Below, piece after piece: positions 4,006 to 48,857 of a DNA stretch of 64,000 nucleotides. The notes below the pieces were generated by a model. That model worked only from the letters and a program-made list of their open reading frames with translations. It was not told the origin of the DNA and searched no databases. This stretch comes from JBDREC01 sp043820105 [NCBI: Pseudomonadota bacterium] (GTDB lineage: Bacteria; Bdellovibrionota_F; JAHFAK01): NCBI GenBank assembly GCA_043820105.1, contig JBDREC010000039.1, positions 1-64,000 on the forward strand, read 5' to 3'. Position 1 is the first letter of the stretch. Each line of letters begins with the position of its first letter. A program made the translations under genes and the position numbers.

Positions 4006-4021
4006 TGGCACCAAATTTGCA
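4006..4021 (+). promoter_or_regulatory. Sigma-54 (-24/-12) promoter
   Basis: TGGCAC, 5 nt, TTGCA: a full match to the RpoN consensus, with GG and GC exactly 12 nt apart. The -12 element is about 49 nt before the ATG of the exported protein at 4069. A bacterial enhancer-binding activator would be required; none is encoded in the window. Confidence 0.85.
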
Positions 4022-4068
4022 CTGTATAAGCAAAGACTGAATTTAAAATTCCCATAAAGGGGGCAAAA

Positions 4069-5985
4069 ATGAAATTTTTAACAAAGCACAACTATCTGTT
4101 TTCATGCAAATATATACGATTTGCCTTATTATTTTTAATCTTATTTATACTAAATTTTTCCTCTATTTTTGCGAATTTTTTGTCTCACTATGAAGAACAA
4201 AATGCGGCATGTGATTTTGGGAAAAAGGGGCTTGAAAAGTTTTATAAAGTGTCGAATTCTGGAAAATATCATCTGACTTATTGGAAAACAATCTCACAAC
4301 ATGATCTAAGTGCTTATCTAATAAAAGCAGATTTTAATAAAGATGAAAACTGGGATAAGTGTATTAAACCAGGCTTAGCATATCTATACCTCGATGCATG
4401 GCTTTGGCAAGTATATCTAGAAAACAAGGCTTCTGAAAATCCTGAAAATTCAACTTATAAAAAGCAAGCCAGGCAAAATGAAGAAGGTTTAAAATACTAT
4501 GTTACACCTCTATTTTATAATGCTTTCCATGAAAAAGATGGTCATTTATTAAAAGTTTCTGAAATAAAACAAAGTGAAATCAATATTCCCAACAGTATGG
4601 AGACATCAGTTACAAATAGAATATTAAACATGTCTGATGAGCTTACTGAAATTGACTTAGTGCTAATGGATGCATGTGAAGCGCTCTCTACCTGCACAGA
4701 CCTTGTAAGCTTCTTCAAAGCAAATCACCAAGTGATTTTAAAACCAGAAGAATCAAAACAGCATTTGCCAGAGTATGATCCTCTAGGCTTAGATCACGAA
4801 AAAGAATTAATGACAACAATAGAAGATTCTAATGAAGAAGATATCTATGGAATACAAATTGAAAAAGTTAACACCAATAATTCAGAAGAGATTTTGGAAA
4901 AAAAGGCTGAAGCCAAACCCATAGAAAACACACAAGCTGCTGAACAAAAGCATTTTGAAGATACTATAAACTTGGCAGACTCTTCTCTTCATTTGGAAAT
5001 CTCTGATGAATCTTATTTCTATACTTCTCAGCTAATGTTAAATTGGATAAGAGCTTATAACCCAGAAATGGCGCTTGCATTTATTGACATAGTGTCATTG
5101 GTTAAAAACTATAGTGATGACAAAATCAATCACCCCAAAAATGCATTTTTAGCCCTTCTGCTATATAACAAAACACCTCTTGACCTAGAAGAAGTGTGTC
5201 TTGAAAAAAATCTTAACATCTATGATTGCACCTATACATTTCTGGCTGCATGGGATCTAAAGTATATTTATGCTAATAACTTTATAAATAATGATCCTGG
5301 TTTTAACAGAGAAGAAATACTTTTTACTTTTAACAGGAAAATAGTATTAACATGGTTAGGTTTATGCAGTGAAATAAATGAAAATCTTGCTGTAGCAATT
5401 ACTGAAAATTTAAGCCTTTTAACAGACAGTTTTTATGACTTTGCCTCTCAAGATCTTCGAGGGGAAAGTTGCAATAATTATATGGAAATCGCAAAGCTAA
5501 AAATTCATTTTAATGCTATACACAGATGGAATGAAAAAGAGTTTATTCAGGAAGTGTATATTGCAGGCTATAACCCACACAAAGACTATAATCAAGATTA
5601 TACAAGACAAAGGATTGTAGATAAAAAAGATGACAAAAAAGTAGTTATCATTGAAAACCAGCCGGTTTCTACTCCAGAGGAAACAAATAGCAGTGATAGC
5701 GACATAGAGAAAATAAGACTTTGGTTAAAGGAATATGGATCGTATAATCCAGAACTTAAAGAGACAATATTACGTGCTTCAGGTGAGTTTACTAAAACCA
5801 ATAACTTGATGGAATATGTAGCAGATGAAGGCGATGGTTTTATTAGATTAAATGACGATTTCTATGCATATTTAGTAGCAGAAGATATTGAAATTGAAAA
5901 ATTAAATACACAAGGAAAAGACCAATATCATAAGATAACTGCTCAAACCATATATGATAAATTTGTTTCCTATTACCTTTTCTAA
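4069..5985 (+). CDS. Exported protein of unknown function
   Basis: A 638-residue protein whose basic N-terminus and hydrophobic stretch at about 16-34 look like a signal peptide ending near IFANF. The remainder is hydrophilic and rich in Asp, Glu, Asn and Lys, with a low-complexity acidic region around residues 225-310 and several cysteines (CDF, DACEALSTC, SCNN) that could form disulfides. I recognise no domain. The ATG has a strong AAGGGGG ribosome binding site and an excellent sigma-54 promoter upstream. It shares that arrangement with seven other exported-protein genes here, which suggests a common regulon. Confidence 0.8.
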   Translation: MKFLTKHNYLFSCKYIRFALLFLILFILNFSSIFANFLSHYEEQNAACDFGKKGLEKFYKVSNSGKYHLTYWKTISQHDLSAYLIKADFNKDENWDKCIKPGLAYLYLDAWLWQVYLENKASENPENSTYKKQARQNEEGLKYYVTPLFYNAFHEKDGHLLKVSEIKQSEINIPNSMETSVTNRILNMSDELTEIDLVLMDACEALSTCTDLVSFFKANHQVILKPEESKQHLPEYDPLGLDHEKELMTTIEDSNEEDIYGIQIEKVNTNNSEEILEKKAEAKPIENTQAAEQKHFEDTINLADSSLHLEISDESYFYTSQLMLNWIRAYNPEMALAFIDIVSLVKNYSDDKINHPKNAFLALLLYNKTPLDLEEVCLEKNLNIYDCTYTFLAAWDLKYIYANNFINNDPGFNREEILFTFNRKIVLTWLGLCSEINENLAVAITENLSLLTDSFYDFASQDLRGESCNNYMEIAKLKIHFNAIHRWNEKEFIQEVYIAGYNPHKDYNQDYTRQRIVDKKDDKKVVIIENQPVSTPEETNSSDSDIEKIRLWLKEYGSYNPELKETILRASGEFTKTNNLMEYVADEGDGFIRLNDDFYAYLVAEDIEIEKLNTQGKDQYHKITAQTIYDKFVSYYLF

Positions 5986-6000
5986 TTTGAATCTTGCTTT

Positions 6001-6035
6001 TTAAGTCTTAAGTGTTATGTGGTAAGTTATAAGCC
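6001..6035 (+). repeat. Degenerate heptamer array
   Basis: Five 7-nt units in a row: TTAAGTC, TTAAGTG, TTATGTG, GTAAGTT, ATAAGCC. It fills most of the space between the upstream exported-protein gene and rsmG and ends about 20 nt before the rsmG start. Confidence 0.55.
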
Positions 6036-6054
6036 ATGAACCCAAGGAAAACCC

Positions 6055-6699
6055 ATGATAGCACTTGAAATTGAAATGAATAAACTTTTCAGACACTTTG
6101 GTTTTCAATTATCAAAAAACCAAATCTCCATGTTTGCAAAATTCCATGATATTTTATTGCAGGAAAATAAAAAAATAAATATAACGCGTCTTCATCGCTT
6201 TGAAGATATTGTAATTAAACATTTTGTGGATTCGATTATTATTAACCGTCACGTCTGGCTACCTAATAATTTAATGGACATTGGCACAGGTGGCGGATTC
6301 CCTGGAATTCCTTTAAAAATTGTCACACCAAAATTAAATCTTACCTTAGTTGAACCTGTTTTAAAAAGAGTAAATTTTTTGAAATTAGTCAGAAAAGAAC
6401 TAAACCTTAACAAGGTAAATATTATTGGGAAAAAAGTAGACCTAGACTTTTCATATCCTGCTGAGGGAATTGTAACACGAGCATTTAAATCCATTGACCA
6501 TACCTTGAATATTGTTAGCAGGTCTTTACAAGTAGGAGGCAGAGTCTTTTTCATGAAAGGACCAAAGGCTGATGTAGACCTGGCTTCAATTACAAATGAA
6601 ACTAAAAAGATTTTTTCTATTGCCAGCGATGTTTCTTATGAACTTCCAAACACAAGCTATAAAAGAAGAATTATTGTGTTTCAAAAGGAGTGGGAATAA
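6055..6699 (+). CDS. rsmG: 16S rRNA m7G527 methyltransferase RsmG
   Basis: RsmG (GidB) methylates N7 of G527 in 16S rRNA using S-adenosylmethionine. The 214-residue length is normal. The SAM-binding loop DIGTGGGFPGIPL is intact at about residues 77-89, preceded by the family motif ENKKINITR and followed by VEPVLKR and a VTRAF motif. The ATG follows an AAGGAA ribosome binding site. It is usually linked to gidA or parA/parB, but here it lies before an RluB-type pseudouridine synthase, pairing two rRNA modification genes separated only by a heptamer array. Confidence 0.93.
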   Translation: MIALEIEMNKLFRHFGFQLSKNQISMFAKFHDILLQENKKINITRLHRFEDIVIKHFVDSIIINRHVWLPNNLMDIGTGGGFPGIPLKIVTPKLNLTLVEPVLKRVNFLKLVRKELNLNKVNIIGKKVDLDFSYPAEGIVTRAFKSIDHTLNIVSRSLQVGGRVFFMKGPKADVDLASITNETKKIFSIASDVSYELPNTSYKRRIIVFQKEWE

Positions 6700-6703
6700 T
6701 TTA

Positions 6704-6731
6704 TTGCCGCTTGCTAGTTGCTAGTTGCTGG
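6704..6731 (+). repeat. TTGCTAG heptamer array
   Basis: Four 7-nt units: TTGCCGC, TTGCTAG, TTGCTAG, TTGCTGG. The array begins just after the rsmG stop and fills the spacer before the pseudouridine synthase gene. Confidence 0.75.
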
Positions 6732-6747
6732 TAATAATGAGAATACT

Positions 6748-7542: not shown

Positions 7543-7568
7543 AGATTTTTTTCAGCTGATTAAGCGAA

Positions 7569-8774: not shown

Positions 8775-8783
8775 TTTATTCTC

Positions 8784-10738: not shown

Positions 10739-10754
10739 TGGTATCCATTTTGCT
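10739..10754 (+). promoter_or_regulatory. Sigma-54-like promoter
   Basis: TGGTAT, 5 nt, TTGCT. The invariant GG and GC are 12 nt apart; two -24 positions differ from TGGCAC. It lies about 68 nt before the ATG of the exported protein at 10821. Confidence 0.65.
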
Positions 10755-10820
10755 TTTATATAAAATACTTAATGAATAATAGATAATTTTTATATATAAT
10801 TGGAGATGGGTTATAACTTT

Positions 10821-13178
10821 ATGAAATGTAAGTTTTTTTTAGCATTAGTTCTAATTCTTATAATTTCTTTCTGCACTATTTCTTATGCAAACCTAGTTGA
10901 AATATTATTTGAAAGTCCAGAAGAATTGCCCAATTTTTATATTTCAGAAATGGAAGAAAACACAAAACTTGAAGGCATAAAACTAAATGGTTTTTTTGAA
11001 AAATATCAGCAGTATTTTACGATAGCAGATGATGGCCAAATATATTTAAAAACAACATTATCAAAAGAAGCTCTTGAATCTTTAGAAAAGTTAATTGGCT
11101 ATTCAAAGATTCAAAATGAAGTGCACAGATATACTGTAATTTCAAACATCTGGAAAGAAGACATTCAAGATAGGTATTACTATTCAGCTTATCATATTCA
11201 AAGAGAAAATGAGCTTACCTTTTATGAATGTTCTGATTCAATATTTGACAAGTTTGCACTTCACTCAAAGAAGTTATTTATCAATCCAATAATTGATGCA
11301 ATTGGAGAAGGTTATGAACAAAGAAACAAGGCAAGACAAATATTAATTGAATACTTGATCGATAAAAAATGTGATACCTACAACGAAGCATTGGAACTTT
11401 TAAGAAAAAACCAGCCCTTGCTTTATGAAAAATTGGGAACAAATGATTCATCAGATACAATAAACTTTTCACAAGACATTGGAATTAGCTGGATGACTTT
11501 TTTAAGTGAATTAACGCGAGCAAAAAACTATTCAGCCCTACAAGAAGTAATTGAAGAACATATCCTTAGCAAAGAAATAGATAATATTGTAACTGCCTTT
11601 ATAGAAAATAATAATGAAGAATATGTAAAAATCATTCAAAATATTGTTGATTCAGATTTAGCACAAAACCTATATGAACAATACGAAGAAAGACAGTGTC
11701 TTTATGAAATAAAATACAAGGAAAACTGGTCACCTGACGATATCGAAAACCTGGTAAATATAGAATTAGATAAAAGCATAAGACGCAAAGTTTTTTTTGA
11801 AGGCGTAAAGGCTGGCTTATTGAAACCCATACACTTTAGGGGTGATTTGTTTTTTAGCGCTCAATCAAAAAGGCAAGCTTGGCAAGTTTATAAAGAGGCT
11901 TTCAACCCAGAAGAATCTATTCTTCCATGGAACTGGTCAACAGAAACAATAGACAACACCGTTCAAACGCTAGGAATGGCACTGCTTCCAGTAGGAGCCT
12001 CAATTGCAGCCACTAGCGTATCAAGGCAACTTTTCTCAAGCATTCTAAAAAATTATATAAAGAAAAAAGCAACGCGGGATTTTCTAATAAAGCGTGCCTC
12101 GTTAGCAGTTGGAGCTCTTACTTTTTCTGTAGCCAATAGTGCTATGTATACTCCTATTGTAGGAAAAGCAGCATGGAATCATTTTATTGAAACATCGATT
12201 TTTATGTATTTAATTGGCGAAAGTATTGCTCTAACAGCATTATCCACTGAATTTCTAGCTCGTCCTTTTTCAAAAATCATACCTAATAACATAATAACAA
12301 ACACTGTAAAACATACAGCAAACCTTTCAATTGAATCAGCTGTTGTGCTAGCCCTATCTGAAATCCCAATTTGGTCGCAGAATGATCATAACAGCACTTA
12401 TTTAAAAAAATATACACAGATACTTTTGTTTTTACTCGAAATTAAAATATTTGCTCTAAGTCTAGATCCATATATTAAAGGTTTAATAAGCGAACCAATA
12501 AAAGAACCTGGTCAAAAGAGAAGAACATTTATTGAAGAAGAGGACCTGCCCAGGCTGGACTCAGATGAGCAGCCAACTCGTAGATTTGAAGATAAAATTC
12601 CCCATTGTCCATTGTTAAGCGAACTCCCAAGCTATGTAGTAAGAAAAGGCTCATTTTCTGATACAAACCCTACTATCAAGGGTACAGAAAAAGTAGTTTC
12701 AGGGGTTGATAAAATTTTTGGAAGACAAGATCTTGACCCAAGACAACTTGTGTTGCAGCAAACGCATAATAAAAGTCCACTACCCCTTGAAAGAGCTCTC
12801 CGTTTAAGGCAAGAGCTTATTGACAATGGATTGGATGCACGTTTTCAAAGAGAAATTGTTGGAAGAGGAATTGTCCAAGGTGAAGAAACAGTTAGTTTAA
12901 TAGTAAAAAGAAACAAATACCATGCTCAAACCTCTGGCAGAACAATAATGATTGATTTCAATGGAACCCCTGAAGCTAGAGTTATCCAAGAAGAAACCAC
13001 TGAAATAATTAGAATTTTAAAAGAAAATAAAATAACACTAATTCATTATGAAATAGAAATAACTGAAGATGGTCATGTAAAAATCGCTGATCCCGAACAA
13101 GTTATAATTGGAACAGAACCTACAGAGATTGATCTTGAACCCCTTGAATTACTTATAGAGATGGTGAGTGTTGAGTAA
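10821..13178 (+). CDS. Exported or membrane protein of unknown function
   Basis: A 785-residue protein with a clear signal peptide (basic MKCK, hydrophobic core, cleavage likely after SYA). About 350 residues of helical, acidic sequence follow. A central hydrophobic part (about 385-540) holds several possible membrane segments, such as LGMALLPVGASIAATSV, VGALTFSVANSAMY and FMYLIGESIALTALS. The C-terminal third is hydrophilic, with a ligand- or enzyme-like stretch from about 635 on (RALRLRQELIDNGLDARF, SGRTIMIDFNG). I recognise no family. The frame is open from TTG 10800, but the signal peptide starts at ATG 10821. A sigma-54-like promoter precedes it. Confidence 0.75.
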   Translation: MKCKFFLALVLILIISFCTISYANLVEILFESPEELPNFYISEMEENTKLEGIKLNGFFEKYQQYFTIADDGQIYLKTTLSKEALESLEKLIGYSKIQNEVHRYTVISNIWKEDIQDRYYYSAYHIQRENELTFYECSDSIFDKFALHSKKLFINPIIDAIGEGYEQRNKARQILIEYLIDKKCDTYNEALELLRKNQPLLYEKLGTNDSSDTINFSQDIGISWMTFLSELTRAKNYSALQEVIEEHILSKEIDNIVTAFIENNNEEYVKIIQNIVDSDLAQNLYEQYEERQCLYEIKYKENWSPDDIENLVNIELDKSIRRKVFFEGVKAGLLKPIHFRGDLFFSAQSKRQAWQVYKEAFNPEESILPWNWSTETIDNTVQTLGMALLPVGASIAATSVSRQLFSSILKNYIKKKATRDFLIKRASLAVGALTFSVANSAMYTPIVGKAAWNHFIETSIFMYLIGESIALTALSTEFLARPFSKIIPNNIITNTVKHTANLSIESAVVLALSEIPIWSQNDHNSTYLKKYTQILLFLLEIKIFALSLDPYIKGLISEPIKEPGQKRRTFIEEEDLPRLDSDEQPTRRFEDKIPHCPLLSELPSYVVRKGSFSDTNPTIKGTEKVVSGVDKIFGRQDLDPRQLVLQQTHNKSPLPLERALRLRQELIDNGLDARFQREIVGRGIVQGEETVSLIVKRNKYHAQTSGRTIMIDFNGTPEARVIQEETTEIIRILKENKITLIHYEIEITEDGHVKIADPEQVIIGTEPTEIDLEPLELLIEMVSVE

Positions 13179-18799: not shown

Positions 18800-20860
18800 T
18801 TATCTTAAATCAACTATATCATTAATTGTTACATCATTAATATTGAGGAAAGTTGGATCTTGGTCGTCATATTTTGAATAACCCCAGTCTATGAAAGTAC
18901 CATCTGTGAACATAAAAGCAGATCCATAAAATTCTGTGATTTCTTTTTCAAAACCAAAGTCAATTGCTTGGCTGATATCACCATATGTTGCTTGAAGATA
19001 GGAATCGCCAAAGTTTCTAAAACTTCCATCTTCAAATTTAACCATAAATACATATCCACCATTTTCAATTTCAATTGCCTTAGTATCTACTGAAAAATCA
19101 ACACTTATTAGATTATCACCCATTTCACCTGCTTCATCACCGATTATTTCGCCTGCTTCAAAAGCTGGATTTAAATGACTAAAGGTATTTCCTCCCCAGC
19201 ATTTTACTTCACCACTATCAAGCACAGCACATGTTCCAAAAACACAGCCAGCAATATCTACAACTTTTTTATTTTCACCAAGATTAATGTATGCTAATAA
19301 ATCGCCCATTTCACCCGCTTCATCGCCTCTGTGATTATTATCTTCATATCCAAGTTGTCCATATCCATTGTGTCCAAAACATTTCAGCTTGCCATTTTCA
19401 AAAATTGCACAAGTGTGACCACCAAAGCCTTTAAGCTTAACAACTTCACTGTCAGAGCCAAGGTCAACTAATTGAGGTGTAGTAATACTGATTTCTGAGC
19501 TTTCAACGCCAACCTGACCAAACTCGTTATAGCCCCAGCACATAACTTCATTCTTGTCCAATACCTTATTATAGGTTAAGGCACAGTTATTCCAGCTAGC
19601 TCCAACTGAGATTGCTTGTCTTGCTTCACCAAGGTCAATAGCTGGAAGCTTATCACCCATTTCACCATCATCATCGCCTCTTGTTTCATAATCACCAAGA
19701 CCGAGTTGACCAAAATCATTCATTCCCCAGCATTTGAGATCGCCATTATCTAAAATTGCACAGCTATTATAAGAAGGAGCATTAATATATAAGGCATATC
19801 TATCTGTTCCTAAATCAATTTCTGAATATTCATAAACAGGATCTGCATTTCCAAGACCTGCTTCACCGTAATTATTTTCACCTTTACAATATGTTTTTTT
19901 ATCAACTGTAGCGCAATTATAGCCAAAGTTTTTAACTTCGATTTTTGATAAAATTGAATCGCCAATTGGCATAATTTCTGACAATTGAATTTTAAGTTTT
20001 GCAATAGATAAGGCACCTTGACCATCTTTAAATTCAAAATTTAGAATTAGCATTGAATCATTATTTAAGTCCACATCTGCCATATTAATTTTAGAACTAA
20101 AAGAACAAAAATTAAATGCATCATCAATGTTAAGGTCAAAGTCAAAACTATTAAAATTATATGCACTTATTTCAATATCATTTAATTTTTTATTTTCATC
20201 TACAGAGTAAGATGTTTTTAAAGATTCTTTAATAAGACATAAATCAGAACCATTTGAGTCTATGGCTTGCAATGCGTTCGGATATAGCTTTATTTCTAAA
20301 ACACCATTTTCTGAATAATTAGTAGCAATTAGATCTTCATTAAAGAAAACATCAGCTGCATCATTGATAAGAACTTCAGTTGAAACATTTGAATCTTGTG
20401 AAATAATTGTTATTTCAAAACCATCTTTATTCCTATTAACTTGAATTTCAACAATCTTTTCTTCTTGAAAGATATCTTCTTCTATTTGAGCTGAACCTAG
20501 CTCTTTTTCGCCATCTTGTAATGTTGCACTAAAAGTAGTTTTTCCATAAGGAACTTGAAAATCTGTACTAACTTCTGAACTTTCATCAGAAATATCTTCT
20601 ATAATAGCAGAATCCTCATATTTTTCATTTTTAACTTCAATAATTAAATCAAAACTTTCAATAATTTCAGATCCACTATTAAATGTAGTAATCATTTTAA
20701 CCTTTGAAACAGCATTTTTTTCATTTTGATCATTCACTTCTTTATTTCCTGAATCTAAACAAGAGTTTAAAATCATTGAAAATACAGTAATAATGATAAT
20801 TGGTAAAATTGAACTGATTTTTTTTAGGTTTAAATACCTTTGGTTTGTACTTTTCTTCAT
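18800..20860 (-). CDS. RCC1-repeat lipoprotein
   Basis: A 686-residue lipoprotein: basic N-terminus, hydrophobic helix and lipobox LNSC. About 290 residues of beta-rich, Asp/Glu/Ser-rich sequence follow, then an RCC1/BNR-type beta-propeller with repeats such as NCATVDKKTYCKGENNYGEAGLG, each ending in a C.W/KGxNxxGQLG motif. Three repeats carry a GD(E/D)xGEMGD insert. Paired cysteines within each repeat suggest disulfides outside the cytoplasm. Such propellers bind protein or ligands; the partner is unknown. Two adjacent ATGs exist (20863, 20860); the second has better spacing from the AGGAGG site. A sigma-54-type promoter precedes it. Confidence 0.85.
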   Translation of the reverse strand: MKKSTNQRYLNLKKISSILPIIIITVFSMILNSCLDSGNKEVNDQNEKNAVSKVKMITTFNSGSEIIESFDLIIEVKNEKYEDSAIIEDISDESSEVSTDFQVPYGKTTFSATLQDGEKELGSAQIEEDIFQEEKIVEIQVNRNKDGFEITIISQDSNVSTEVLINDAADVFFNEDLIATNYSENGVLEIKLYPNALQAIDSNGSDLCLIKESLKTSYSVDENKKLNDIEISAYNFNSFDFDLNIDDAFNFCSFSSKINMADVDLNNDSMLILNFEFKDGQGALSIAKLKIQLSEIMPIGDSILSKIEVKNFGYNCATVDKKTYCKGENNYGEAGLGNADPVYEYSEIDLGTDRYALYINAPSYNSCAILDNGDLKCWGMNDFGQLGLGDYETRGDDDGEMGDKLPAIDLGEARQAISVGASWNNCALTYNKVLDKNEVMCWGYNEFGQVGVESSEISITTPQLVDLGSDSEVVKLKGFGGHTCAIFENGKLKCFGHNGYGQLGYEDNNHRGDEAGEMGDLLAYINLGENKKVVDIAGCVFGTCAVLDSGEVKCWGGNTFSHLNPAFEAGEIIGDEAGEMGDNLISVDFSVDTKAIEIENGGYVFMVKFEDGSFRNFGDSYLQATYGDISQAIDFGFEKEITEFYGSAFMFTDGTFIDWGYSKYDDQDPTFLNINDVTINDIVDLR

Positions 20861-20907
20861 CATGTTCCTCCTTGAAATTTAATGCTGCAAACTTGTTAAT
20901 TATATAT

Positions 20908-20923
20908 AGCGAGCTTTGTGCCA
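20908..20923 (-). promoter_or_regulatory. Sigma-54-type promoter
   Basis: On the minus strand: TGGCAC, 5 nt, TCGCT. The -24 box is perfect; the -12 box has C for T in TTGC. GG and GC are 12 nt apart. It lies about 49 nt before the RCC1 lipoprotein start. Confidence 0.65.
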
Positions 20924-21656: not shown

Positions 21657-21672
21657 TGGTACACCTTTTGCT
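21657..21672 (+). promoter_or_regulatory. Sigma-54 promoter
   Basis: TGGTAC, 5 nt, TTGCT, with GG and GC 12 nt apart. The -12 box is about 49 nt before the ATG of the protease-like lipoprotein. Confidence 0.78.
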
Positions 21673-21719: not shown

Positions 21720-23699
21720 ATGAAAAATATCATTCTTATTACTATTTTTTGCCTACTAATTGGGTGTACTTCTGAAGGCTATCGAGAATTCTTACAAAAT
21801 GCTAATGGAAATGAAGACCAATCAGATAGTGAACTTGATTTTGATAAAGACTTTAGCTTAATGGAATTTGAAACAAGATCCAGTACTTTTTCAGAATCAT
21901 CTTTTCTTTTAAATAAGGAAAATTTTGATATTTATTCTTCAGAAGATGTTATATTTAGTAAGCAAAAAAAGGCAGAACCTGAAATTCGTACTACACGAAA
22001 ACATGCAGGCTATTATTTATCTGATCAAAAATATGAAAATAGTTATAAATTTAAAGAAGCTGATTTCTATAGTGATATGCTTACCTGTTCAGATGTTCAT
22101 GATGAAGAATCAGTAATTACTAAACTAAGTATTGAAGAAATTAGCTCAGGAAAATTTAATAAAGCTAATATGTCATGTTCAACTTTTGATTTTGAAGATG
22201 GAAGTATCAATAATAATCAAGAGTTAAGTTCTGACTATTTTTTTAATATGAACAATTCAGGGGATAACTATTATTCTGAGTTTCCTGATGGATATGTTAC
22301 TGCAATTAAGTTTTTTTTCTCATACACAGGGATTGTGGATTTCCAGCTAATGGGAACAAGTGCAGAGAGGGTTCTTGGTCAAAACACTCATAATGACAGT
22401 GGATACCTGGCAACAGGTAGAGGTGTTGATTATAGAAGTACTTATTATACTCCTACTTGTGCTCTAGGATCAGTGATGACAGGTTTACAATTTGGCTATA
22501 GAACCAATAATAATTCAACAAAAGCCAATATTACAGAAATTTATTGGGAGTGTACTTTTTTAGGTTATGCTGGAACACGAATTCGAGTTTCAGATACTAA
22601 AGAGTTTCCTTTTAATACAATTGCAAGGGTTCATAAAGAGCACTTTGCAGGTACAGCATCACTTATTAGTCCATACGCTGCATTAACAAATGCTCATGTT
22701 GTATACAGCAGAGGAAACGGGAAATACCATACAGAATTACTCATTAAACCTGCTATGACTAAAGTGGGTAATTATTTACTTAATCCCTATGGTGTACGAA
22801 CCTCTTTGTATTCAAAGACAAATGATAAATGGGTTGATTCTGAAACAAATGCAGAAGAGGTTGATTATGGAGCTTTATTGTTCGCATGTGCATTTGAAGA
22901 AATTTCAACATATATGCCCCTTGTTTTTGACTCTGACCCAAACTATATCCATCTTTCGGGGTATCCAGTTGAGGAGGTTTCAGATGAATATTATCAATAT
23001 TACAGTGAAGGCGATGTCATTATAAAAGAAGAAAGATTAATTTATTACAATGCTGTTTCCAGTGGAGGTGCCAGTGGATCACCTGTATGGCTTGAGCAAA
23101 ATAGAACCAAGCAAAGAATCGTTGCTGTAAATAGAGGTTCTAATGATATTCACGGCGGACAAGGGGTAAGACTAACTTGGCAAAATGAAGATCTGATTTT
23201 ATCCTGGATGGAATGGCAACCGACTTTTGCTGAAAAACTCTCCCAGGATTGCCCTCAAAAACCTGTGCATATTACAAATTGGGAAGAATTAAAAAAGCTG
23301 TTTGTAACTACACATAAAGATAAATTAATTTCAAGCGATGATTTAAAGCTTGGAAAATTATCTGACACTAGTGGTGCAACTTCACACGTTAAGGTTGCTC
23401 AATACATTGAAAATAATTTATATGTTTGGGAAGAATATACATTTAAAAATAATGATAATGACGATAAAATTTTTGTAAAAATGCTTAAGCCAGAAAAAAA
23501 GATTTTGGAAACAGAAGAAGCTCGCGTTTTACTTTCAGCTTCCAGACAATGGATTGACCAAAAACCAAGTGGCGAGCATGCTTTGCTTGAAGAAATTGAT
23601 GAAAAAGAAGAGTTTAAAGCTTTTCAGGTGCAAATGAATTATGGTTTTTTAAGTAAATCTCTTGAAAAGGATTCTTTAATTGATGAAGAGGCGGATTAA
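21720..23699 (+). CDS. V8/trypsin-like serine protease lipoprotein
   Basis: A 659-residue lipoprotein (lipobox LIGC at about 13-16) with a chymotrypsin-fold protease domain. The triad is visible: His326 in TNAHVV, Asp382 in VDYGALL and Ser454 in SGGASGSPVW. The pattern matches the S1B/V8 glutamyl-endopeptidase group. Residues 200-290 form a separate cysteine-containing beta-rich part with no recognised name. A hydrophilic tail follows the protease. It should act at the cell surface or in the periplasm. ATG has a strong AGGAGGG site. It is transcribed divergently from the RCC1 lipoprotein, and both have sigma-54-type promoters. Confidence 0.87.
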   Translation: MKNIILITIFCLLIGCTSEGYREFLQNANGNEDQSDSELDFDKDFSLMEFETRSSTFSESSFLLNKENFDIYSSEDVIFSKQKKAEPEIRTTRKHAGYYLSDQKYENSYKFKEADFYSDMLTCSDVHDEESVITKLSIEEISSGKFNKANMSCSTFDFEDGSINNNQELSSDYFFNMNNSGDNYYSEFPDGYVTAIKFFFSYTGIVDFQLMGTSAERVLGQNTHNDSGYLATGRGVDYRSTYYTPTCALGSVMTGLQFGYRTNNNSTKANITEIYWECTFLGYAGTRIRVSDTKEFPFNTIARVHKEHFAGTASLISPYAALTNAHVVYSRGNGKYHTELLIKPAMTKVGNYLLNPYGVRTSLYSKTNDKWVDSETNAEEVDYGALLFACAFEEISTYMPLVFDSDPNYIHLSGYPVEEVSDEYYQYYSEGDVIIKEERLIYYNAVSSGGASGSPVWLEQNRTKQRIVAVNRGSNDIHGGQGVRLTWQNEDLILSWMEWQPTFAEKLSQDCPQKPVHITNWEELKKLFVTTHKDKLISSDDLKLGKLSDTSGATSHVKVAQYIENNLYVWEEYTFKNNDNDDKIFVKMLKPEKKILETEEARVLLSASRQWIDQKPSGEHALLEEIDEKEEFKAFQVQMNYGFLSKSLEKDSLIDEEAD

Positions 23700-23759: not shown

Positions 23760-24746
23760 TTAATCAAGATTACCAACACCTAGTCTTGAACCATTGTCAG
23801 ATAGGGCAATGTCAGCAATGGCAGCAACAATAATTTTCTTCAATTCCTGAATGCTTGATTCATTATCTTCATCTCTCATTTCTTCACCAACATGCTCAAA
23901 AAAATCAAACACAATTTCATAAACAACGGAAGAAGTTGTTGCCATGTATCTAGAAACAGGCTTTGAATGATCCCTTAGCATCAACTGACTTGATAAAAGG
24001 GCTCTTGGCCAGTAGTGGTATTCTTTTTGTTGTGAAACTTTCTCTATATGCTGAACAGGTACATTTCTAATATTTGGAAATCTTTGAGAAAGGATTCCAG
24101 CCAGATAATCAGTTCCATCCCATTTCTTTAAAATTTCTATCATTTCTGAATTTGCAGAAGCTATTTCTAATTGTGATATGATTTGACCTAAACCACCATG
24201 GCTTGCATTTGGAATTGAACTAATGAAAATTGCCAAAGCAAGGTTATTTTCAGTTGCGTCCATAATAAGATCAAAAACAGACTCAATCATTATTTCTTCT
24301 TCTGTTCCTAGGACATCTGCAATAATTGCATCAAGTCTTTTTAGTGCTGGCAGATATTCATTACTATTATTAATGAGTTCATTAATAATAAAATTAACAG
24401 TCATTGTACAACCCGCTGCAATTTTTGAAGGATTGCTTTTTAATGGACAAAATGGAGATGCAACTTCCATAACATCCTTAACAAGTTTTTTGCAACCAAA
24501 CTCCACACTTCCAATACCTACATTTATAGGACAAAATAAAAATAATAATTTTTCAACGTAATCAAAAATATTTTTATAAACAGGAATATCAACTTCTTCT
24601 TCAAGGGAGGCGCTTTCTTTTTTGATAACTCCTTGGCTATCTTTATGTGGTAAAATTAGATCTTGCTCACCTGGCTCTTGTGCCATAATGAAATTTGGGA
24701 AGGCAAAAATAGAGAAAATGACAATACATAATAGAAACCTTTTCAT
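23760..24746 (-). CDS. Exported protein of unknown function
   Basis: A 328-residue protein with a classical signal peptide (MKRFLLC, hydrophobic core, cleavage likely after MAQ or nearby). The mature part has four cysteines in two clusters (FCPINV, FGCKK, FCPLKS, AGCTM), suggesting disulfide bonds, and is otherwise helical. I recognise no domain. It is convergent with the protease gene, with 60 nt between stops. An excellent sigma-54 promoter lies about 110 nt upstream on the same strand. Confidence 0.78.
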   Translation of the reverse strand: MKRFLLCIVIFSIFAFPNFIMAQEPGEQDLILPHKDSQGVIKKESASLEEEVDIPVYKNIFDYVEKLLFLFCPINVGIGSVEFGCKKLVKDVMEVASPFCPLKSNPSKIAAGCTMTVNFIINELINNSNEYLPALKRLDAIIADVLGTEEEIMIESVFDLIMDATENNLALAIFISSIPNASHGGLGQIISQLEIASANSEMIEILKKWDGTDYLAGILSQRFPNIRNVPVQHIEKVSQQKEYHYWPRALLSSQLMLRDHSKPVSRYMATTSSVVYEIVFDFFEHVGEEMRDEDNESSIQELKKIIVAAIADIALSDNGSRLGVGNLD

Positions 24747-24854: not shown

Positions 24855-24870
24855 TGCAAAGAGTGTGCCA
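24855..24870 (-). promoter_or_regulatory. Sigma-54 (-24/-12) promoter
   Basis: On the minus strand: TGGCAC, 5 nt, TTGCA, a full consensus match with correct 12-nt spacing, about 110 nt before the exported protein gene that starts at 24746. Confidence 0.85.
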
Positions 24871-27837: not shown

Positions 27838-28229
27838 GGTTATTCTCCTCTGTTATAAATATTAATATTTGTATGATTAGTTTAGAATGCCCTAAAATTG
27901 GTTTGTTCATCATTGCAAAAAAGATTACAAAGTAATGAGACCTGTTTTTGTTTGCAAAGAATATGCCGCAGTAAAATGTTGAAGCAAGCGAATAACATTA
28001 AGGGCTTAAAATAATATTGCCTTTTGTTTTGTGATTATAATGGTGTAAAAAGAGGCTTTTTAGAGTCAAAATATCTCCAGGAGATTTATGACAGACATAG
28101 CATTCATGCATTGAAAAGATTATATTGATTTATAATTATTATAGATTAACTTAAAGGTAAGGCAGATAAAAATTAATTTATAATGATATATGCATAAAAA
28201 GTGTTTATAATATTAGAGAAAGGTTTTTA
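27838..28229. other. Divergent intergenic region
   Basis: No gene seen in these 392 nt between the S28 peptidase and the AAA-membrane protein. It contains the sigma-54-like site for the peptidase and a small AAAAAG-3-CTTTTT hairpin near 28047. Confidence 0.5.
27953..27968 (-). promoter_or_regulatory. Sigma-54-like promoter
   Basis: On the minus strand: CGGCAT, 5 nt, TTGCA. The -12 box is perfect and the spacing correct, but two -24 positions differ. It is about 117 nt before the S28 peptidase start. Confidence 0.5.
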
Positions 28230-32296: not shown

Positions 32297-32312
32297 TGGC
32301 ACTGAATTTGCT
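32297..32312 (+). promoter_or_regulatory. Sigma-54 (-24/-12) promoter
   Basis: TGGCAC, 5 nt, TTGCT, with 12-nt GG-GC spacing. The -12 box is about 42 nt before the GTG of the small exported protein that leads into the large repeat protein. Confidence 0.85.
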
Positions 32313-32352: not shown

Positions 32353-32574
32353 GTGAACAAACAGAAATTAAAACTAATCTTATTCTTTATCTTAATCTTT
32401 ATTTTAAACTTGTCCCTTCCAATCACGATCAGGCAAGCTTTTGCTGCATATCCTATGTTTGTTGGATGTGGAGTTCGGCATATTGGTTATGAAGATGGCC
32501 GTGAAATAAGCGTTGCTGAGGATGTAAGTTCAAATATCCTGGTACTAAAAAGTAAAAATTGGGGGAATAGATAA
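32353..32574 (+). CDS. Small exported protein
   Basis: A 73-residue protein with a strong signal peptide (hydrophobic 8-22, cleavage likely after QAFA). The mature part would be about 40 residues, with GCGVRHIGYEDG and SSNILVLKSK. The latter resembles a strand of the repeats in the next gene (SNSVVAIRLKDG), so it may be a broken or partial copy of that repeat. It begins with GTG without a strong ribosome binding site, directly downstream of a sigma-54 promoter, and ends 2 nt before the next gene. Confidence 0.6.
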   Translation: MNKQKLKLILFFILIFILNLSLPITIRQAFAAYPMFVGCGVRHIGYEDGREISVAEDVSSNILVLKSKNWGNR

Positions 32575-32576: not shown

Positions 32577-35255
32577 GTGTTGGAACTTAAAAGAATAATA
32601 ACATTTCTCATCCCTGTCTTATGCTTTAGTTTTTTCTCAATACAGGCAAGCCAGGATTGCCTGAACCTTTTTTCTTTTACTATTCTAAACGCAGAAAGAT
32701 CAAATTTAGAGCAAAGGTCTTTAAATGCTACTATCCAGACAAGAATTACTGCTTCAGGTGCCTTTAATGATGCTCTTGGCAACAGTTTTTTTAGACCAAT
32801 TTTTGCAGATCATCCAGTTGAAATTGATTTGCTTCAAGGTGTGATTGTAGAAGTAAGGATATTTGAAAAGTCAGATGACATGCCTAATATTTTTAAAACA
32901 AAGCCTATAAAGAGAATTGAGTTCAAGCTTTTTATTAATGAAAATGGTCAATTGGCATCTTCTTTTGAGAATAATTATAATCGTGATTCAATGAAAAATG
33001 GGATTATTCTACGCAGGTTAATTGGCAAATCTTTGCACTTTGATTATCATAAATTTTGGGGAAGCTTTGAAGTTGCTTCAAATAGCGTGGTAGCGATAAG
33101 ACTTAAAGATGGTCAGGTTCTTAGAGCTGATGTTCTTGATGTTCAAAATATTAAAGATGCTTTAAGCATAGACATGAATAAAGAGAACTCACATATAATC
33201 ATGAGCAGAGATTATTCACTTGTCTATAACAGGCATGGAAGTTTAGTTAGGTCTGACATGTCCCCCCCTAATGCCGGTGAAATGGCAGGCTTTGATTTGC
33301 ATACTGCAATAGTCCGTCTTGGAAAGCATGGCGAGCTTTATTTGGGAGAAAGGAATATTGCAAGATTTAATAACTTTGAAATGCATATTGCAGCTGTTAA
33401 AATTTTGAATGGTTTTGTTGTTGAGGTAAACATATTAAAAGTTAAGAACACCTATGACGTTAAAAAACCAGGTTCAATTGATTCACAGCTGGCAGATAAT
33501 GGAAAAAGGGAATTTGCTTTAATTTACGATATTAATGGAAACTTAATTGAAACCCAAACAAAACACTCAACTAACAGCTTGGAAGGTCATGTGAAAATAG
33601 ACGGAAGAACCATTATTACAAGGCTAAGTGACAGTGGTCGCCTTTCTATTGCAGCTCTTGGATATAATCTGGAGTTTGCAAATCATAAGGCTGGGATCGT
33701 TGCTATTAAATGCCGGAATGGGGTCATTTGGGAGCTCGACTTTTTAGATGCCACACATATTTGGAACATTAAAGATTTAGATGATATTGAAAGACATATA
33801 AAAAAAGATGAAAATGGCCTTGAGATTGGAAGACAATTTTTCAGACTGGTTTGGGATAGAGATCAAAATCTGCTTGGATCTTTTTACACACATTCCGGAA
33901 GGATTACTCCACGCTATGGCAATAATGAGGGGCCCATTACCTTAGCTCCAGATATAAATGCCCAGGAGATCTTCACAAGAAAAGCTAAAAAATATTTAGC
34001 AGATGATGAAAGCGCTTCATCTCCTGCTATTTGTCCACCAAAGATGATAATTATGGATTCAATACCCATCAAAACGTCTGATGCTATAAGTGACAAAGAA
34101 TTATCAACCCTGAATGATATTACAATCAGGACCTTTCTTAAAGAAAATGGAATGCTGAACCTTGGGGGAGAGCATATCTTCCAGAGAAAGAACTTGAGCA
34201 AAAATCCAGTAGAAATCGATATTATTCAAGGTGAAATCATAGAAATTAGAATTTTTGAAATAGCAAGTGCATCTGACTCTGCCTTTTTATCCTCTCCAAT
34301 CGAAAAAGTAGAATTTTCACTTGCCTTTGATTTTGAGGGCAACTTTTTGAGAACTTTTGGATCAAGATTCTATGGTTTTAATAAAAGCTTTCAAGGAACC
34401 ATAATTACAAGATTAAAAAACAGAAGCAGTGAAATCGCAGGCAATAACCTGGGAACCTTTGAAGAAGCGTATGCTTCTAATTTAGTAGCAGCGAGATTTC
34501 AAAATGGAGTGCTTATAAGAACAGATGTTCTTGATTTAAGCAAAATCAAAGAAGCCCTTGATTTAAAGCCACAGGAGCAGGAAGCTCATATCTTGGATTC
34601 CAGAGAATACATTCTTAATTATAATACAAGGGGTGAATTAGTAGCTTCTTACACTCACCAATCATCAATAACAATGGCAAGGCTTGAAACCTTTGAATCA
34701 AATATTCTTGTATTAAGATTAAACGATGAAGGCTTAATCCGAATAGGCAAAAAAGATGTTTTGAAAAAAAGGTGTTTTGCAAATAGCCTGGCTGCTGTAT
34801 CAATTACAGATGGTGTTGTGACATTGGTAAGAATTTTGAATATTGAAAAGCCTTATGATTTAGATGACATAATAAAGCTTAACAGACATGTTGTAGAGAA
34901 TGGAAAAATTGAATTCTACCTGGTCTGGGATATAGCTGGAAGATTAATTGATTCTTTTCAAAGCCTTTATCCAGTTCCCCAAAGGCTTTGGTATATAAAT
35001 GGAGTTATAAGTGGAAATTTATTTGTGGATTCACATAATGGCTTTATCTTCAGGGGAGTTCGTTATTCTTTTGGAACAAAAGAAGATTATAGTGGATACC
35101 CTATTAGCAAAATACAGTTTTCAGAACCAAGAAGGCCAGGCCAAATAACAAGTTTTGTAATCTTTGATGAATCAAGCAAAGAAGAGGTGGTTGTCTGGAC
35201 AGATGATATAGTAAGAAAAGATTTATCGAGCATTGGCAATGGTATGATAAATTAA
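32577..35255 (+). CDS. Large exported protein of tandem ~100-residue repeats
   Basis: An 892-residue protein with a signal peptide (about 6-24). The mature protein is built from repeats about 90-102 residues apart. Their cores begin near 79, 169, 270, 371, 543, 635 and 737, with a divergent eighth near 840. Each core reads roughly hydrophobic-A-x-hydrophobic-x-x-G-V-hydrophobic-x-E-hydrophobic-x-hydrophobic-L, then after a spacer a (Y/W)D-x-x-G-x-L-x-x-S-F ending; a strand such as TIITRL..G.L lies between cores. The two halves (79-436, 543-794) align with each other, pointing to a later large duplication. I know no matching family. GTG follows a GGGGGAA site. Confidence 0.8.
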   Translation: MLELKRIITFLIPVLCFSFFSIQASQDCLNLFSFTILNAERSNLEQRSLNATIQTRITASGAFNDALGNSFFRPIFADHPVEIDLLQGVIVEVRIFEKSDDMPNIFKTKPIKRIEFKLFINENGQLASSFENNYNRDSMKNGIILRRLIGKSLHFDYHKFWGSFEVASNSVVAIRLKDGQVLRADVLDVQNIKDALSIDMNKENSHIIMSRDYSLVYNRHGSLVRSDMSPPNAGEMAGFDLHTAIVRLGKHGELYLGERNIARFNNFEMHIAAVKILNGFVVEVNILKVKNTYDVKKPGSIDSQLADNGKREFALIYDINGNLIETQTKHSTNSLEGHVKIDGRTIITRLSDSGRLSIAALGYNLEFANHKAGIVAIKCRNGVIWELDFLDATHIWNIKDLDDIERHIKKDENGLEIGRQFFRLVWDRDQNLLGSFYTHSGRITPRYGNNEGPITLAPDINAQEIFTRKAKKYLADDESASSPAICPPKMIIMDSIPIKTSDAISDKELSTLNDITIRTFLKENGMLNLGGEHIFQRKNLSKNPVEIDIIQGEIIEIRIFEIASASDSAFLSSPIEKVEFSLAFDFEGNFLRTFGSRFYGFNKSFQGTIITRLKNRSSEIAGNNLGTFEEAYASNLVAARFQNGVLIRTDVLDLSKIKEALDLKPQEQEAHILDSREYILNYNTRGELVASYTHQSSITMARLETFESNILVLRLNDEGLIRIGKKDVLKKRCFANSLAAVSITDGVVTLVRILNIEKPYDLDDIIKLNRHVVENGKIEFYLVWDIAGRLIDSFQSLYPVPQRLWYINGVISGNLFVDSHNGFIFRGVRYSFGTKEDYSGYPISKIQFSEPRRPGQITSFVIFDESSKEEVVVWTDDIVRKDLSSIGNGMIN

Positions 35256-35330: not shown

Positions 35331-35529
35331 AAATGTCTAATTTCCAGAATTCATAAGAAAAAATAAACCTTCTAATTAAAGTCGATATCTGTTTTGTCTC
35401 TAATTGTCGCAAATAATTAGTTTTTTGGGTTTGTGTATGTTTCAAGCAATAATGGCAGCATTTTTGCATATTGTTTTTCATTATTCATTAAAATGTTAAA
35501 AACATAAAAGTAACATAAGGAAAAACCCA

Positions 35530-44915: not shown

Positions 44916-44928
44916 TTAAATTACCTGT

Positions 44929-46336: not shown

Positions 46337-46349
46337 TTAAAATATTCCC

Positions 46350-47135: not shown

Positions 47136-47236
47136 ATCTAACCTTTCAATCCTTATTTTCTTGTGATTAGTAACGTTTTCGAGCACGTGTACGAGCAAGG
47201 TCCTCTCTCGTTTCTTGCCAGCAACTAAGCAACCAG

Positions 47237-47770
47237 TCACCCCTTTACAACACCCAGGGGAATCACTTTCGCCACTTTCACAGCTATTTGAGAATCATGA
47301 ATTACATCAATAACATTTACTACGTCTTTATACGCTTCTGGCATTTCTTCTGCAAGTCCTTTTTGACTTTTTGATCCAACACCACTTGGAACAGCTGAAA
47401 AAATCTTATAAATTATATCTTCAATGTGCTTTTCTATTTCTTCTTTATGTATATTGGTTTTTAAAAAACGTACTCCACAATTAATATCATAACCCACACC
47501 ACCTGGCGAAATTATACCTTCATTTAAATCAAAGGCAGCTACTCCGCCAATTGGAAAACCATAGCCAGAGTGAATGTCCGGCATTGCAAGGCTGTGTCTT
47601 ACAATCCCTGGAAGACAGGCTACATTTGCCACCTGTTCTAAACAATTATCACCTGCAATATCTTTTTCAAGCTTGTGATTTGCATAAATAATTCCATCAA
47701 CATTCATTTTTCCTTGTTTGGGAATAATTAAACGGTTTTTATCAAGTCTTTTGCAGGTGATTGGTGGCAT
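47237..47770 (-). pseudogene. rtcB: Internally deleted RtcB RNA ligase
   Basis: A 177-residue frame that begins like RtcB (normally about 480 residues) with MPDIHSGYGFPIGG and the metal-binding GVGYDINCGVR, then after AVPSGVGSKSQ jumps to what looks like the extreme C-terminus of RtcB (EMPEAYKDV...VAKVIPLGVVKG). About 300 central residues are missing, including the histidine that carries GMP. The frame is open across the join. RtcB joins 3'-phosphate or cyclic phosphate ends to 5'-OH RNA; this product should lack ligase activity. Either a decayed gene or a small derived protein. Confidence 0.75.
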
Positions 47771-47800
47771 TTAGTTTTTTCAATAATTAATATAAAAAAA

Positions 47801-47828
47801 GCGTACAGAGTATAGCGTACAGCGTATG
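47801..47828 (+). repeat. GCGTACA heptamer array
   Basis: Units GCGTACA, GAGTATA, GCGTACA, GCGTATG, starting 30 nt upstream of the rtcB-like start. Same family as 15655 and 26378. Confidence 0.8.
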
Positions 47829-47908
47829 AATGATTTTAATAATAGTGGCTCGTTTTTGCAAGGAAATAAGTTGTTTACCAGGATTTAGTTGTCTCTGGGA
47901 TTCGCTTT

Positions 47909-48799
47909 TTATTCAGTTTCAATGATAGTAAGATTAATATACAAGGCTCCAATATTGATTGATTGCTCATTAAATAAAAGTATTGGAAACTTGAAGTTGC
48001 CAGCGTCAGATGTATAGCTCAGTGAAAGAATATAATCTCCAGAATCATTTTTATCAATTGTACAAAAAGCTGGAAGGGAGTTTGATTTTATAATATAGCT
48101 TACATCTAAATTTGAAATATATTCTGATAAATTGATTGTCTCATCTGCTTGCTCTGTGCCTTCAAGGCTTAATCTCGTGATTTGAGCAGTATCTAAGACA
48201 GAGTAATTTACAAGTAATCCATCAGTGATTTCCTGGCTAGTAATTGATGCTGTTGGAGCTGCATTTTCTGAACTTGCATCATCTGAAAAGCTAATTTTTC
48301 CAAGCTCAAAGTTATTATCACTTGATGAGAATTTTACAGTGTATCTTGAAGCGGAGTTTAAGGTTCCCAGGTAATAATCCTCATCTCTGGTTTCTATGTA
48401 AAATTCTATCATATAAGTTACTTCTGGGAAAAGATATAATTCAAAATTACCGTCTTCATTGTCTTGTGCTGAAACAGCGTAATTTTTAACAGTTGTTACG
48501 TTTAATGTCTTTAATTCAGAATCTTGTGTGACAGGTGTTAGGCTAATATTTATTTCCAAATCTTCAGGTGCGATGGTATCAAAATATCTTGATAAAAAAG
48601 AGTTTCTTAAAACAAGATTATCAGCTGGTGTTAGTAAAAATTGATCTATAATTTCTTGATGATTTAAATTCCCAGAAACAATTATTAAATTATCTTCAGC
48701 TGCTACTGCAGCATGGATAGCAGTTTCAATATCATTATTTCCACATGAGCAAAGAATGACTAGAATAAGAAGTGATAGGAGGGCTAATTTTTTTATCAA
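47909..48799 (-). CDS. Lipoprotein of unknown function
   Basis: A 296-residue lipoprotein (signal peptide with lipobox LCSC). The mature part is acidic and beta-rich and reads like one or more Ig-like or carboxypeptidase-regulatory-type domains (for example FELYLFPEVTYMIEFYIE, SGDYILSLSYTSDAGNF). No family is recognised. A sigma-54 promoter lies about 44 nt before the ATG, placing it with the other exported proteins under that control. Confidence 0.78.
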   Translation of the reverse strand: MIKKLALLSLLILVILCSCGNNDIETAIHAAVAAEDNLIIVSGNLNHQEIIDQFLLTPADNLVLRNSFLSRYFDTIAPEDLEINISLTPVTQDSELKTLNVTTVKNYAVSAQDNEDGNFELYLFPEVTYMIEFYIETRDEDYYLGTLNSASRYTVKFSSSDNNFELGKISFSDDASSENAAPTASITSQEITDGLLVNYSVLDTAQITRLSLEGTEQADETINLSEYISNLDVSYIIKSNSLPAFCTIDKNDSGDYILSLSYTSDAGNFKFPILLFNEQSINIGALYINLTIIETE

Positions 48800-48841
48800 G
48801 TTTTACCTCAATCTCTATAGTAATAGGTTATATGCCTTTTC

Positions 48842-48857
48842 TGCAAGTAATATGCCA
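48842..48857 (-). promoter_or_regulatory. Sigma-54 promoter
   Basis: On the minus strand: TGGCAT, 5 nt, TTGCA, one mismatch from consensus and correct spacing, about 44 nt before the lipoprotein start at 48799. Confidence 0.78.

What the first reader, a model, noticed from the sequence alone, without database searches (positions are those of the whole stretch)
4006..48857. A sigma-54 regulon of exported proteins
Eight sites fit the -24/-12 consensus with exact 12-nt GG-GC spacing: 4006 and 32297 (plus), 24855 (minus), 21657 (plus), 48842 and 20908 (minus), 10739 (plus), and weaker 27953 (minus). Every one sits 40-120 nt before a gene for an exported protein (three lipoproteins, an S28 peptidase and four signal-peptide proteins), most of unknown function. 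I saw none before the housekeeping genes. A shared activator could switch on a surface or secreted programme, perhaps predation, development or starvation.
Basis: partly seen in the sequence, partly recalled or inferred. Interest (0 to 1): 0.78.

Follow-up and report, generated by a model that had tools for sequence, protein, structure and literature searches.

The report
Sigma-54 promoters before exported-protein genes
In this stretch of bacterial DNA, several stand-alone genes for secreted or surface proteins sit behind the same special kind of genetic switch, and related bacteria follow the same rule with different genes, which suggests that part of their outer protein coat is turned on as a programme.

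Summary
The sites are real. TGGYAY-N5-TTGCW occurs 7 times in 64 kb against 0.3-0.4 expected; the 12 other spacer lengths from 0 to 12 give one match between them. All 7 are intergenic.

The window's own genome is not held, so I tested relatives. G001: 53 intergenic sites with a called gene, 43 exported, against 78 of 375 background genes (p=9e-18). G002: 32 of 47 against 68 of 347 (p=4e-11). G050: 17 of 29 against 99 of 345 (p=0.0015). Two site-poor relatives show no clear excess.

A shared activator motif appears in G001: palindrome cTGnGACATnnATGTCnCAg, in 12 of 28 held-out promoters against 62 of 688 controls. It also marks 11 of 64 G002 promoters against 13 of 527, but none of 9 window or 29 G050 upstreams at 10 bits.

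Verdict: an enlarged sigma-54 regulon rich in exported proteins, a new variant of a known theme. Predation, development or starvation is untested.

The parts
4006..4021 (+). -24/-12 site TGGCACCAAATTTGCA, 47 nt before the exported 638-aa protein
   Evidence: matrix rank 1, 21.4 bits
4069..5985 (+). exported 638-aa protein, no Pfam or NCBIfam match at E<=0.01; no match in 368 genomes of the relatives' phylum (the tool warns that an empty answer alone shows nothing)
10739..10754 (+). -24/-12 site TGGTATCCATTTTGCT
   Evidence: rank 5
10806..13178 (+). exported 790-aa protein, no family found
20908..20923 (-). -24/-12 site TGGCACAAAGCTCGCT (TCGC for TTGC)
   Evidence: rank 6
18800..20863 (-). lipoprotein (lipobox by eye) with RCC1-like repeats
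21657..21672 (+). -24/-12 site TGGTACACCTTTTGCT
   Evidence: rank 8
21720..23699 (+). lipoprotein with a glutamyl-endopeptidase-like serine protease stretch (residues 287-480); no Pfam or NCBIfam match
   Evidence: match to 1p3c, E=1.5e-7
24855..24870 (-). -24/-12 site TGGCACACTCTTTGCA
   Evidence: rank 11
23760..24746 (-). exported 328-aa protein, no family found
27953..27968 (-). weak site CGGCATATTCTTTGCA
   Evidence: rank 29, 8.3 bits
26455..27837 (-). exported S28 serine carboxypeptidase
   Evidence: PF05577, E=3.1e-75
32297..32312 (+). -24/-12 site TGGCACTGAATTTGCT
   Evidence: rank 2
32353..32574 (+). small ORF with a signal peptide, possibly first in a two-gene unit
32577..35255 (+). 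exported 892-aa protein, no family found
48842..48857 (-). -24/-12 site TGGCATATTACTTGCA
   Evidence: rank 3
47909..48799 (-). lipoprotein (lipobox by eye), 296 aa, no family found
   Evidence: (rank 4)
35453..35468 (+). near-consensus site TGGCAGCATTTTTGCA, 61 nt before a transposase-like gene (35530-36285)
   Evidence: rank 10; Y1_Tnp, just over cut-off; REP_Tyr_transpos, below cut-off

Best explanation
These are promoters read by RNA polymerase carrying sigma-54 (RpoN). The window comes from a relative of Bdellovibrionota-type bacteria in which RpoN serves an unusually large set of stand-alone genes, mostly for lipoproteins and signal-peptide proteins. Transcription of each gene needs an AAA+ enhancer-binding activator. 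In relatives G001 and G002 a shared 20-bp palindrome, mostly 54-163 nt upstream of the -24 box, marks a sizeable part of these promoters, so one activator probably switches on a block of the secretome there. Shown: the sites, their number and placement, the export bias in three relatives, and the shared palindrome in G001 and part of G002. Inferred: the lineage, RpoN dependence, that the palindrome binds an activator, that the window uses the same kind of control, and the signal.
For: 7 strict sites against 0.3-0.4 expected, spacer-specific. A matrix from relatives separates window genes: best upstream score 13.9-21.4 for 9 of 58 genes, below 10 for the other 49; 7 of the 9 are exported against 9 of 49, p=0.001. 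Whole-genome counts: G001 68, G002 88, G050 86. Spacer controls in sampled relatives: G001 10 against a mean of 0.7 for other spacers, G002 20 against a mean of 3.0 and at most 7, G050 31 against at most 4. Export enrichment against background and against transcription-unit leaders (p=1.8e-9, 1e-6, 0.035). rpoN: one copy in 12 of 13 genomes; 15 and 14 Sigma54_activat matches in G001 and G002, the weakest of them probably other AAA proteins. G001's rpoN is itself preceded by a site. Palindrome: found by Gibbs sampling, again from half the promoters with 12 of 28 held-out promoters at 10 bits against 62 of 688 controls, and again from random seeds with log-likelihood 206 against 58-60 for control sets; it picks out six G001 genes with one-off sigma-54 sites.
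Against: No rpoN or activator gene was seen in the window and its genome is not held. The palindrome is not in the window (0 of 9 at 10 bits, 1 of 9 at 8 bits; controls 1 and 3 of 29) nor in G050 (0 of 29), and was not found de novo in G002, where control sets scored about as high or higher. In G001 it also stands at 23 of 220 other transcription-unit leaders. A first k-mer scan missed it. G050's bias is weaker. In two site-poor relatives 6 of 11 and 5 of 9 genes are exported, backgrounds 25 of 70 and 17 of 64. Sites inside genes: 12 of 68 in G001, 7 of 65 in G002. G002's background came from contigs seen in its site list. No expression data. Signal peptides were called by a home-made rule.
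Confidence: 0.85

Rival explanations
1. Ordinary sigma-54 biology: many unrelated activators each control a few genes, and exported genes simply happen to be frequent among environment-responsive genes.
For: 15 and 14 Sigma54_activat matches in G001 and G002; in G002 several activator genes are directly followed by a site; G050 bias is modest; no motif in the window; no clear excess in two site-poor relatives.
Against: 43 of 53 exported in G001, also against transcription-unit leaders; one palindrome in 12 of 28 held-out G001 promoters and 11 of 64 G002 promoters.
Confidence: 0.3
2. Chance matches in an AT-rich, G-C-poor sequence.
For: One site is weak (27953), and three matrix hits above 13 bits lie inside genes.
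Against: 7 against 0.3-0.4 expected, only at spacer 5, all intergenic, and the same rule in three relatives.
Confidence: 0.03
3. The sites belong to another factor with a similar two-box motif, not RpoN.
For: rpoN not seen in the window; no binding data.
Against: The match is to the textbook RpoN consensus (recalled) with exact spacing; 12 of 13 related genomes carry one rpoN, and all 13 have Sigma54_activat matches.
Confidence: 0.05

Closest known systems
Sigma-54 as controller of the bacterial exterior (Francke et al. 2011, PMC3162934; abstract and found passages seen)
   Same: Sigma-54 promoters and activators are linked to surface components, lipoproteins included.
   Different: The abstract and passages stress biosynthesis and transport of precursors of polysaccharide, lipid and peptidoglycan; 'Bdellovibrio' and 'signal peptide' do not occur in the main text. 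Here the targets are individual exported proteins, with a shared upstream palindrome in two relatives.
Borrelia RpoN-linked lipoprotein control (mentioned in passages of PMC3162934; the Rrp2-RpoN-RpoS cascade itself is recalled) and the Chlamydia trachomatis sigma-54 regulon (PMC7482065, search listing only)
   Same: Sigma-54 is tied to surface proteins as a programme.
   Different: In Borrelia control runs through a second sigma factor (recalled); here sites sit directly before each exported gene. Lineage differs; the genes were not compared.
Bdellovibrio bacteriovorus RpoN-like factor bd0843 (passage of PMC11209729)
   Same: Probably the same broad group; an RpoN-like factor.
   Different: No regulon is described in the passages seen. 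Two site-poor relatives read here have only 12 and 11 TGGCAY sites (G079, G147).

Membership tests
Sigma-54 (RpoN) -24/-12 promoter | TGGCAY-N5-TTGCW-like boxes, GG to GC exactly 12 nt | tested here: met
   only spacer 5 enriched
Sigma-54 (RpoN) -24/-12 promoter | intergenic, oriented, short distance before a gene | tested here: met
   all 7 strict sites intergenic, six of them 40-108 nt before an ORF; 16471 has no close gene
Sigma-54 (RpoN) -24/-12 promoter | rpoN gene in the genome | tested here: inconclusive
   own genome not held; 12 of 13 related genomes have one
Sigma-54 (RpoN) -24/-12 promoter | AAA+ activator and upstream activator site | tested here: inconclusive
   relatives: activators, palindrome in G001 and part of G002; window: 0 of 9 at 10 bits
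Sigma-54 (RpoN) -24/-12 promoter | RpoN-dependent transcript starting about 12 nt downstream | not testable with these tools
   no expression data
Sigma-54 regulon of the bacterial exterior | sites enriched before genes for exported or surface products | tested here: met
   G001 43/53, G002 32/47, G050 17/29 against background; window 7/9 against 9/49; not clear in site-poor G079 and G147
Single-activator regulon | one operator shared by most promoters | tested here: inconclusive
   27 of 56 in G001 (24 of 56 cross-validated with a seed taken from the whole set; 12 of 28 in a clean held-out half), 11 of 64 in G002, none at 10 bits in G050 or window

The most novel reading that the evidence does not exclude
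In this lineage sigma-54 is a dedicated switch for the secretome: the rule 'exported gene gets a sigma-54 promoter, often with the palindrome of one conserved activator' is kept while the genes themselves turn over, with new exported genes plugged in by recruiting or copying ready-made promoter cassettes (such as the hairpin-plus-promoter repeat of G050).
Probability: 0.3. Interest if true: 0.78.

Novelty: new variant of a known kind. Interest (0 to 1): 0.62.

Why it matters
It gives a testable regulatory handle on surface and secreted proteins, several of unknown family, in a lineage near predatory bacteria: a sequence rule that predicts which orphan genes are expressed together, and an operator motif that should lead to the activator and so to the signal. 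It also offers a case in which regulatory logic appears conserved while the regulated genes show little similarity (4 similar pairs at E<=1e-4 among 108 site-linked proteins of the window, G001 and G002).

Tried and rejected
K-mer enrichment upstream of sites gave nothing convincing and would have led to a wrong 'no shared motif'. The first Gibbs test gave G001 646 against 595-608 for controls at width 18 and 593 against 579-584 at width 14, but G002 scored at or below its controls. Longer runs and EM then defined the G001 palindrome. One whole-set Gibbs run fell into an A/T-rich optimum and its numbers were dropped (first part); the half-set part of that call recovered the motif. The four-fold cross-validation started from a consensus taken from the whole set, so it is not fully independent; the half-set test and the random-seed search are.

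The backward-pattern control of the genome search looked very strong (68 against 2 in G001) but is unsafe where CG is depleted, because TTGC and TGGCA read backwards contain CG; in the window CG is at 0.48 of expectation (1.26 and 0.99 in G001 and G002). I used spacer and Markov controls instead.

The signal-peptide rule was adjusted once after seeing its errors on window genes, before use on relatives. It still misses sequences that look like signal peptides, so exported counts may be low.

De novo motif search in the window and G050 gave no general operator; the G050 motif GGACGGN4CCGTCC proved to be part of a copied cassette.

A search for 4069-5985 in 368 genomes was empty; the tool warns that this shows nothing by itself. 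The S28 peptidase had matches in 55 of 368 genomes, best 39% identity over most of its length. For the Pfam scan of relatives' site-linked proteins I gave 95 of 99 references, leaving out four. Structure prediction was not used.
Full report
Observation. The eight sequences are at the stated coordinates. The strict form TGGYAY-N5-TTGCW has seven matches in the window: 4006+, 10739+, 16471-16486-, 21657+, 24855-24870-, 32297+ and 48842-48857-; all are intergenic. Random sequences with the window's own order-1 to order-3 statistics give means of 0.33-0.42 matches and at most 3 in 60 runs of each order; keeping the two boxes and changing the spacer gives one match over the 12 other lengths from 0 to 12, and three over the 15 other lengths from 0 to 15.

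Independent scoring. A 22-position matrix built from 100 intergenic sites of two related genomes, none from the window, was run on the window. Thirteen hits reach 12 bits against 2.7 expected (maximum 5 in 20 random runs), so a few of them may be chance. Among all 58 called genes the best score within 300 nt upstream is 13.9 to 21.4 for nine genes and below 10 for the other 49; seven of the nine are exported against nine of the 49 by the same rule (Fisher p=0.001). The S28 peptidase gene, at 8.3 bits, falls in the second group.

Who is this? The window's genome is not held. Its MlaE is closest to MAGs named Deltaproteobacteria UWPOB_DELTA4 (61%, G001), Deltaproteobacteria nzgw173 (54%, G002) and Bdellovibrionales HKST-UBA30 (53%, G003). 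Of 27 genomes searched with AtpD, 24 matched: G002 78%, G050 76%, G001 74%, and 71-73% for site-poor ones such as Bacteriovorax MedPE-SWde (G026); but some site-rich ones are also at 72-73% (G046, G064), so AtpD identity does not separate the two groups cleanly. Alr gave its best score to the site-poor G016, followed by the site-rich G070, G050 and G075, all at 35-38%, and only a weak match in G001. The phylum of G001 includes named Bdellovibrionales and Bacteriovorax MAGs. I infer a Bdellovibrionota-type lineage; no genus or family is claimed.

Genome-wide counts. TGGYAYN5TTGCW: G001 68, G002 88, G003 23, G050 86, G075 61, G064 56. With TGGCAY, G001 has 57 sites in 2.4 Mb and G002 71 in 2.2 Mb, G045 90 in 2.8 Mb, G050 77 in 2.0 Mb and G081 77 in 1.8 Mb; by my reading of the table 15 of the 191 genomes drawn from the phylum have 40 or more, and the rest fewer. 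The backward control printed by the tool is unsafe where CG is depleted, so I rely on spacer controls in sampled sequence: G001 10 against a mean of 0.7, G002 20 against a mean of 3.0 (at most 7), G050 31 against at most 4. The window's 7 in 64 kb is denser than any of these, but one window is a small sample.

What lies downstream. All 68 G001 sites were read: 12 inside genes, 56 intergenic, 53 with a called gene within 250 nt, of which 43 are exported by a home-made signal-peptide and lipobox rule. Background in a 400-kb stretch: 78 of 375 genes (p=9e-18), or 35 of 112 transcription-unit leaders (p=1.8e-9). For G002, 65 of the 88 sites were read: 7 inside genes, 47 with a called gene, 32 exported, against 68 of 347 genes (p=4e-11) and 35 of 132 leaders (p=1e-6) in stretches of contigs taken from the site list. 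Sites within those sampled stretches alone: G001 5 of 6 (p=0.002), G002 12 of 16 (p=5e-6). Further G002 stretches were inspected but not counted. For G050, 400 kb gave 31 sites, 2 inside genes, 17 of 29 exported against 99 of 345 (p=0.0015) and 43 of 119 leaders (p=0.035). In two site-poor relatives the proportions were 6 of 11 (G079) and 5 of 9 (G147), with 25 of 70 and 17 of 64 for the other genes in the fetched stretches; too few to claim an excess. Non-exported targets include rpoN in G001 (its place agrees), a FliL-like protein there (by eye) and an activator gene in G002.

The proteins. Of the eight window proteins, one is an S28 carboxypeptidase, one has RCC1-like repeats and one resembles a glutamyl endopeptidase; the other five have no Pfam or NCBIfam match at E<=0.01. 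Among 108 site-linked proteins of the window, G001 and G002 only four pairs are similar at E<=1e-4, none with a window protein. Of 95 relatives' proteins scanned (of 99), the commonest Pfam matches are TPR repeats, in 5. So the rule is shared but few of the genes are.

A shared activator. Gibbs sampling upstream of the 56 intergenic G001 sites gave a 20-bp palindrome, refined by EM to cTGnGACATnnATGTCnCAg. At 10 bits it is in 27 of 56 promoters (24 of 56 in cross-validation, whose seed came from the whole set) and in 24 of 635 other upstreams, 23 of which are counted among 220 transcription-unit leaders. Cleaner tests: found again from half the promoters, it marks 12 of 28 in the other half against 62 of 688 controls; from random seeds it is again the best motif, log-likelihood 206 against 58 and 60 for two control sets. 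At 8 bits, 32 of 34 centres lie 54 to 163 nt before the -24 box. Of 28 non-site genes with the motif, six have a one-off sigma-54 site after it, five of them called exported; several others share the same motif copy with a divergent site-bearing gene. The G001 motif also marks 11 of 64 G002 promoters against 13 of 527 other upstreams (p=8e-6), at -68 to -109; in that call's gene list 10 of the 12 rows at 10 bits or more are lipoprotein or signal-peptide genes. A strict pattern finds nine places in G001, four of them 75-113 nt before a strict site, and two in G002, one of them 71 nt before a strict site; the places in the other seven genomes with a match were not checked. The motif is absent at 10 bits from the window's nine upstreams (1 of 9 at 8 bits; controls 3 of 29) and from G050's 29. 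De novo search in G002 did not find it.

Mechanism. By established knowledge (recalled), sigma-54 holoenzyme forms a closed complex that an AAA+ activator bound upstream must open. The data fit this: boxes with exact spacing, one rpoN in 12 of 13 related genomes, 15 and 14 Sigma54_activat matches in G001 and G002, activators that mostly end in a Fis-like helix-turn-helix (judged by eye), and an upstream palindrome at a suitable distance. Which activator binds it and what signal it reads are unknown.

Literature. Francke et al. 2011 argued that sigma-54 controls the bacterial exterior (PMC3162934; abstract and found passages). A 2025 survey of sigma-54 regulons has no occurrence of 'Bdellovibrio', 'exported' or 'signal peptide' in its main text (PMC12316311; listing and found passages). 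B. bacteriovorus has an RpoN-like gene bd0843 (passage of PMC11209729). In the rows I saw of searches (3 of 3; 20 of 338; 6 of 6; 3 of 3; 12 of 426; 10 of 115), no title or abstract start describes a sigma-54 secretome regulon in this group; PMC12622784, a Bdellovibrio expression and secretion toolbox, was seen in the listing only. The library is open-access only.

Verdict. The shared-activator idea is supported in two relatives and open for the window. The lifestyle guesses are untested.

Noticed in passing
window 16291-16486 (-): A strict sigma-54 site is followed by no called gene but by a strong long hairpin (110-nt fold, -32.9 kcal/mol) before pyrR; it may drive a small RNA or be part of a pyr leader.
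   Followed up: partly
window 35453-36285 (+); L276 155-760 (G045): A REP-associated tyrosine transposase-like gene has a near-consensus sigma-54 site 61 nt upstream; an ORF in G045 that looks similar by eye also sits behind a strict site.
   Followed up: partly
L333 3621, L335 16462, L341 9946, L344 11802, L346 10823 (G050): Five copies in 400 kb of a cassette of about 60 bp, hairpin GGACGGN4CCGTCC plus a sigma-54 promoter at fixed spacing, before different genes: looks like a copied terminator-promoter module.
   Followed up: partly
L140, L148, L219, L223 near contig ends (G002): A sigma-54 site followed by the same repeated ORF (MKRAFITEHGPLVRRLSEL...), in these four places next to an enhancer-binding protein gene; the contigs end inside the repeat.
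   Followed up: partly
L164 3501-3516 (-) (G001): The rpoN gene of G001 is itself preceded by a strict sigma-54 site, 47 nt upstream, suggesting autoregulation.
   Followed up: no
window 47237-47770 (-): RtcB ORF of only 177 aa (model length 426); appears truncated or frameshifted.
   Followed up: no
whole window: CG dinucleotide strongly depleted (observed/expected 0.48) while sampled G001 and G002 show 1.26 and 0.99; this also biases backward-pattern controls.
   Followed up: partly
window 28230-32136 (+): A 1036-aa membrane protein with a signal-peptide-like start and an AAA ATPase stretch (residues 724-842), followed by an overlapping gene that looks like an MscS-type channel (by eye only); unusual pairing.
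   Followed up: no
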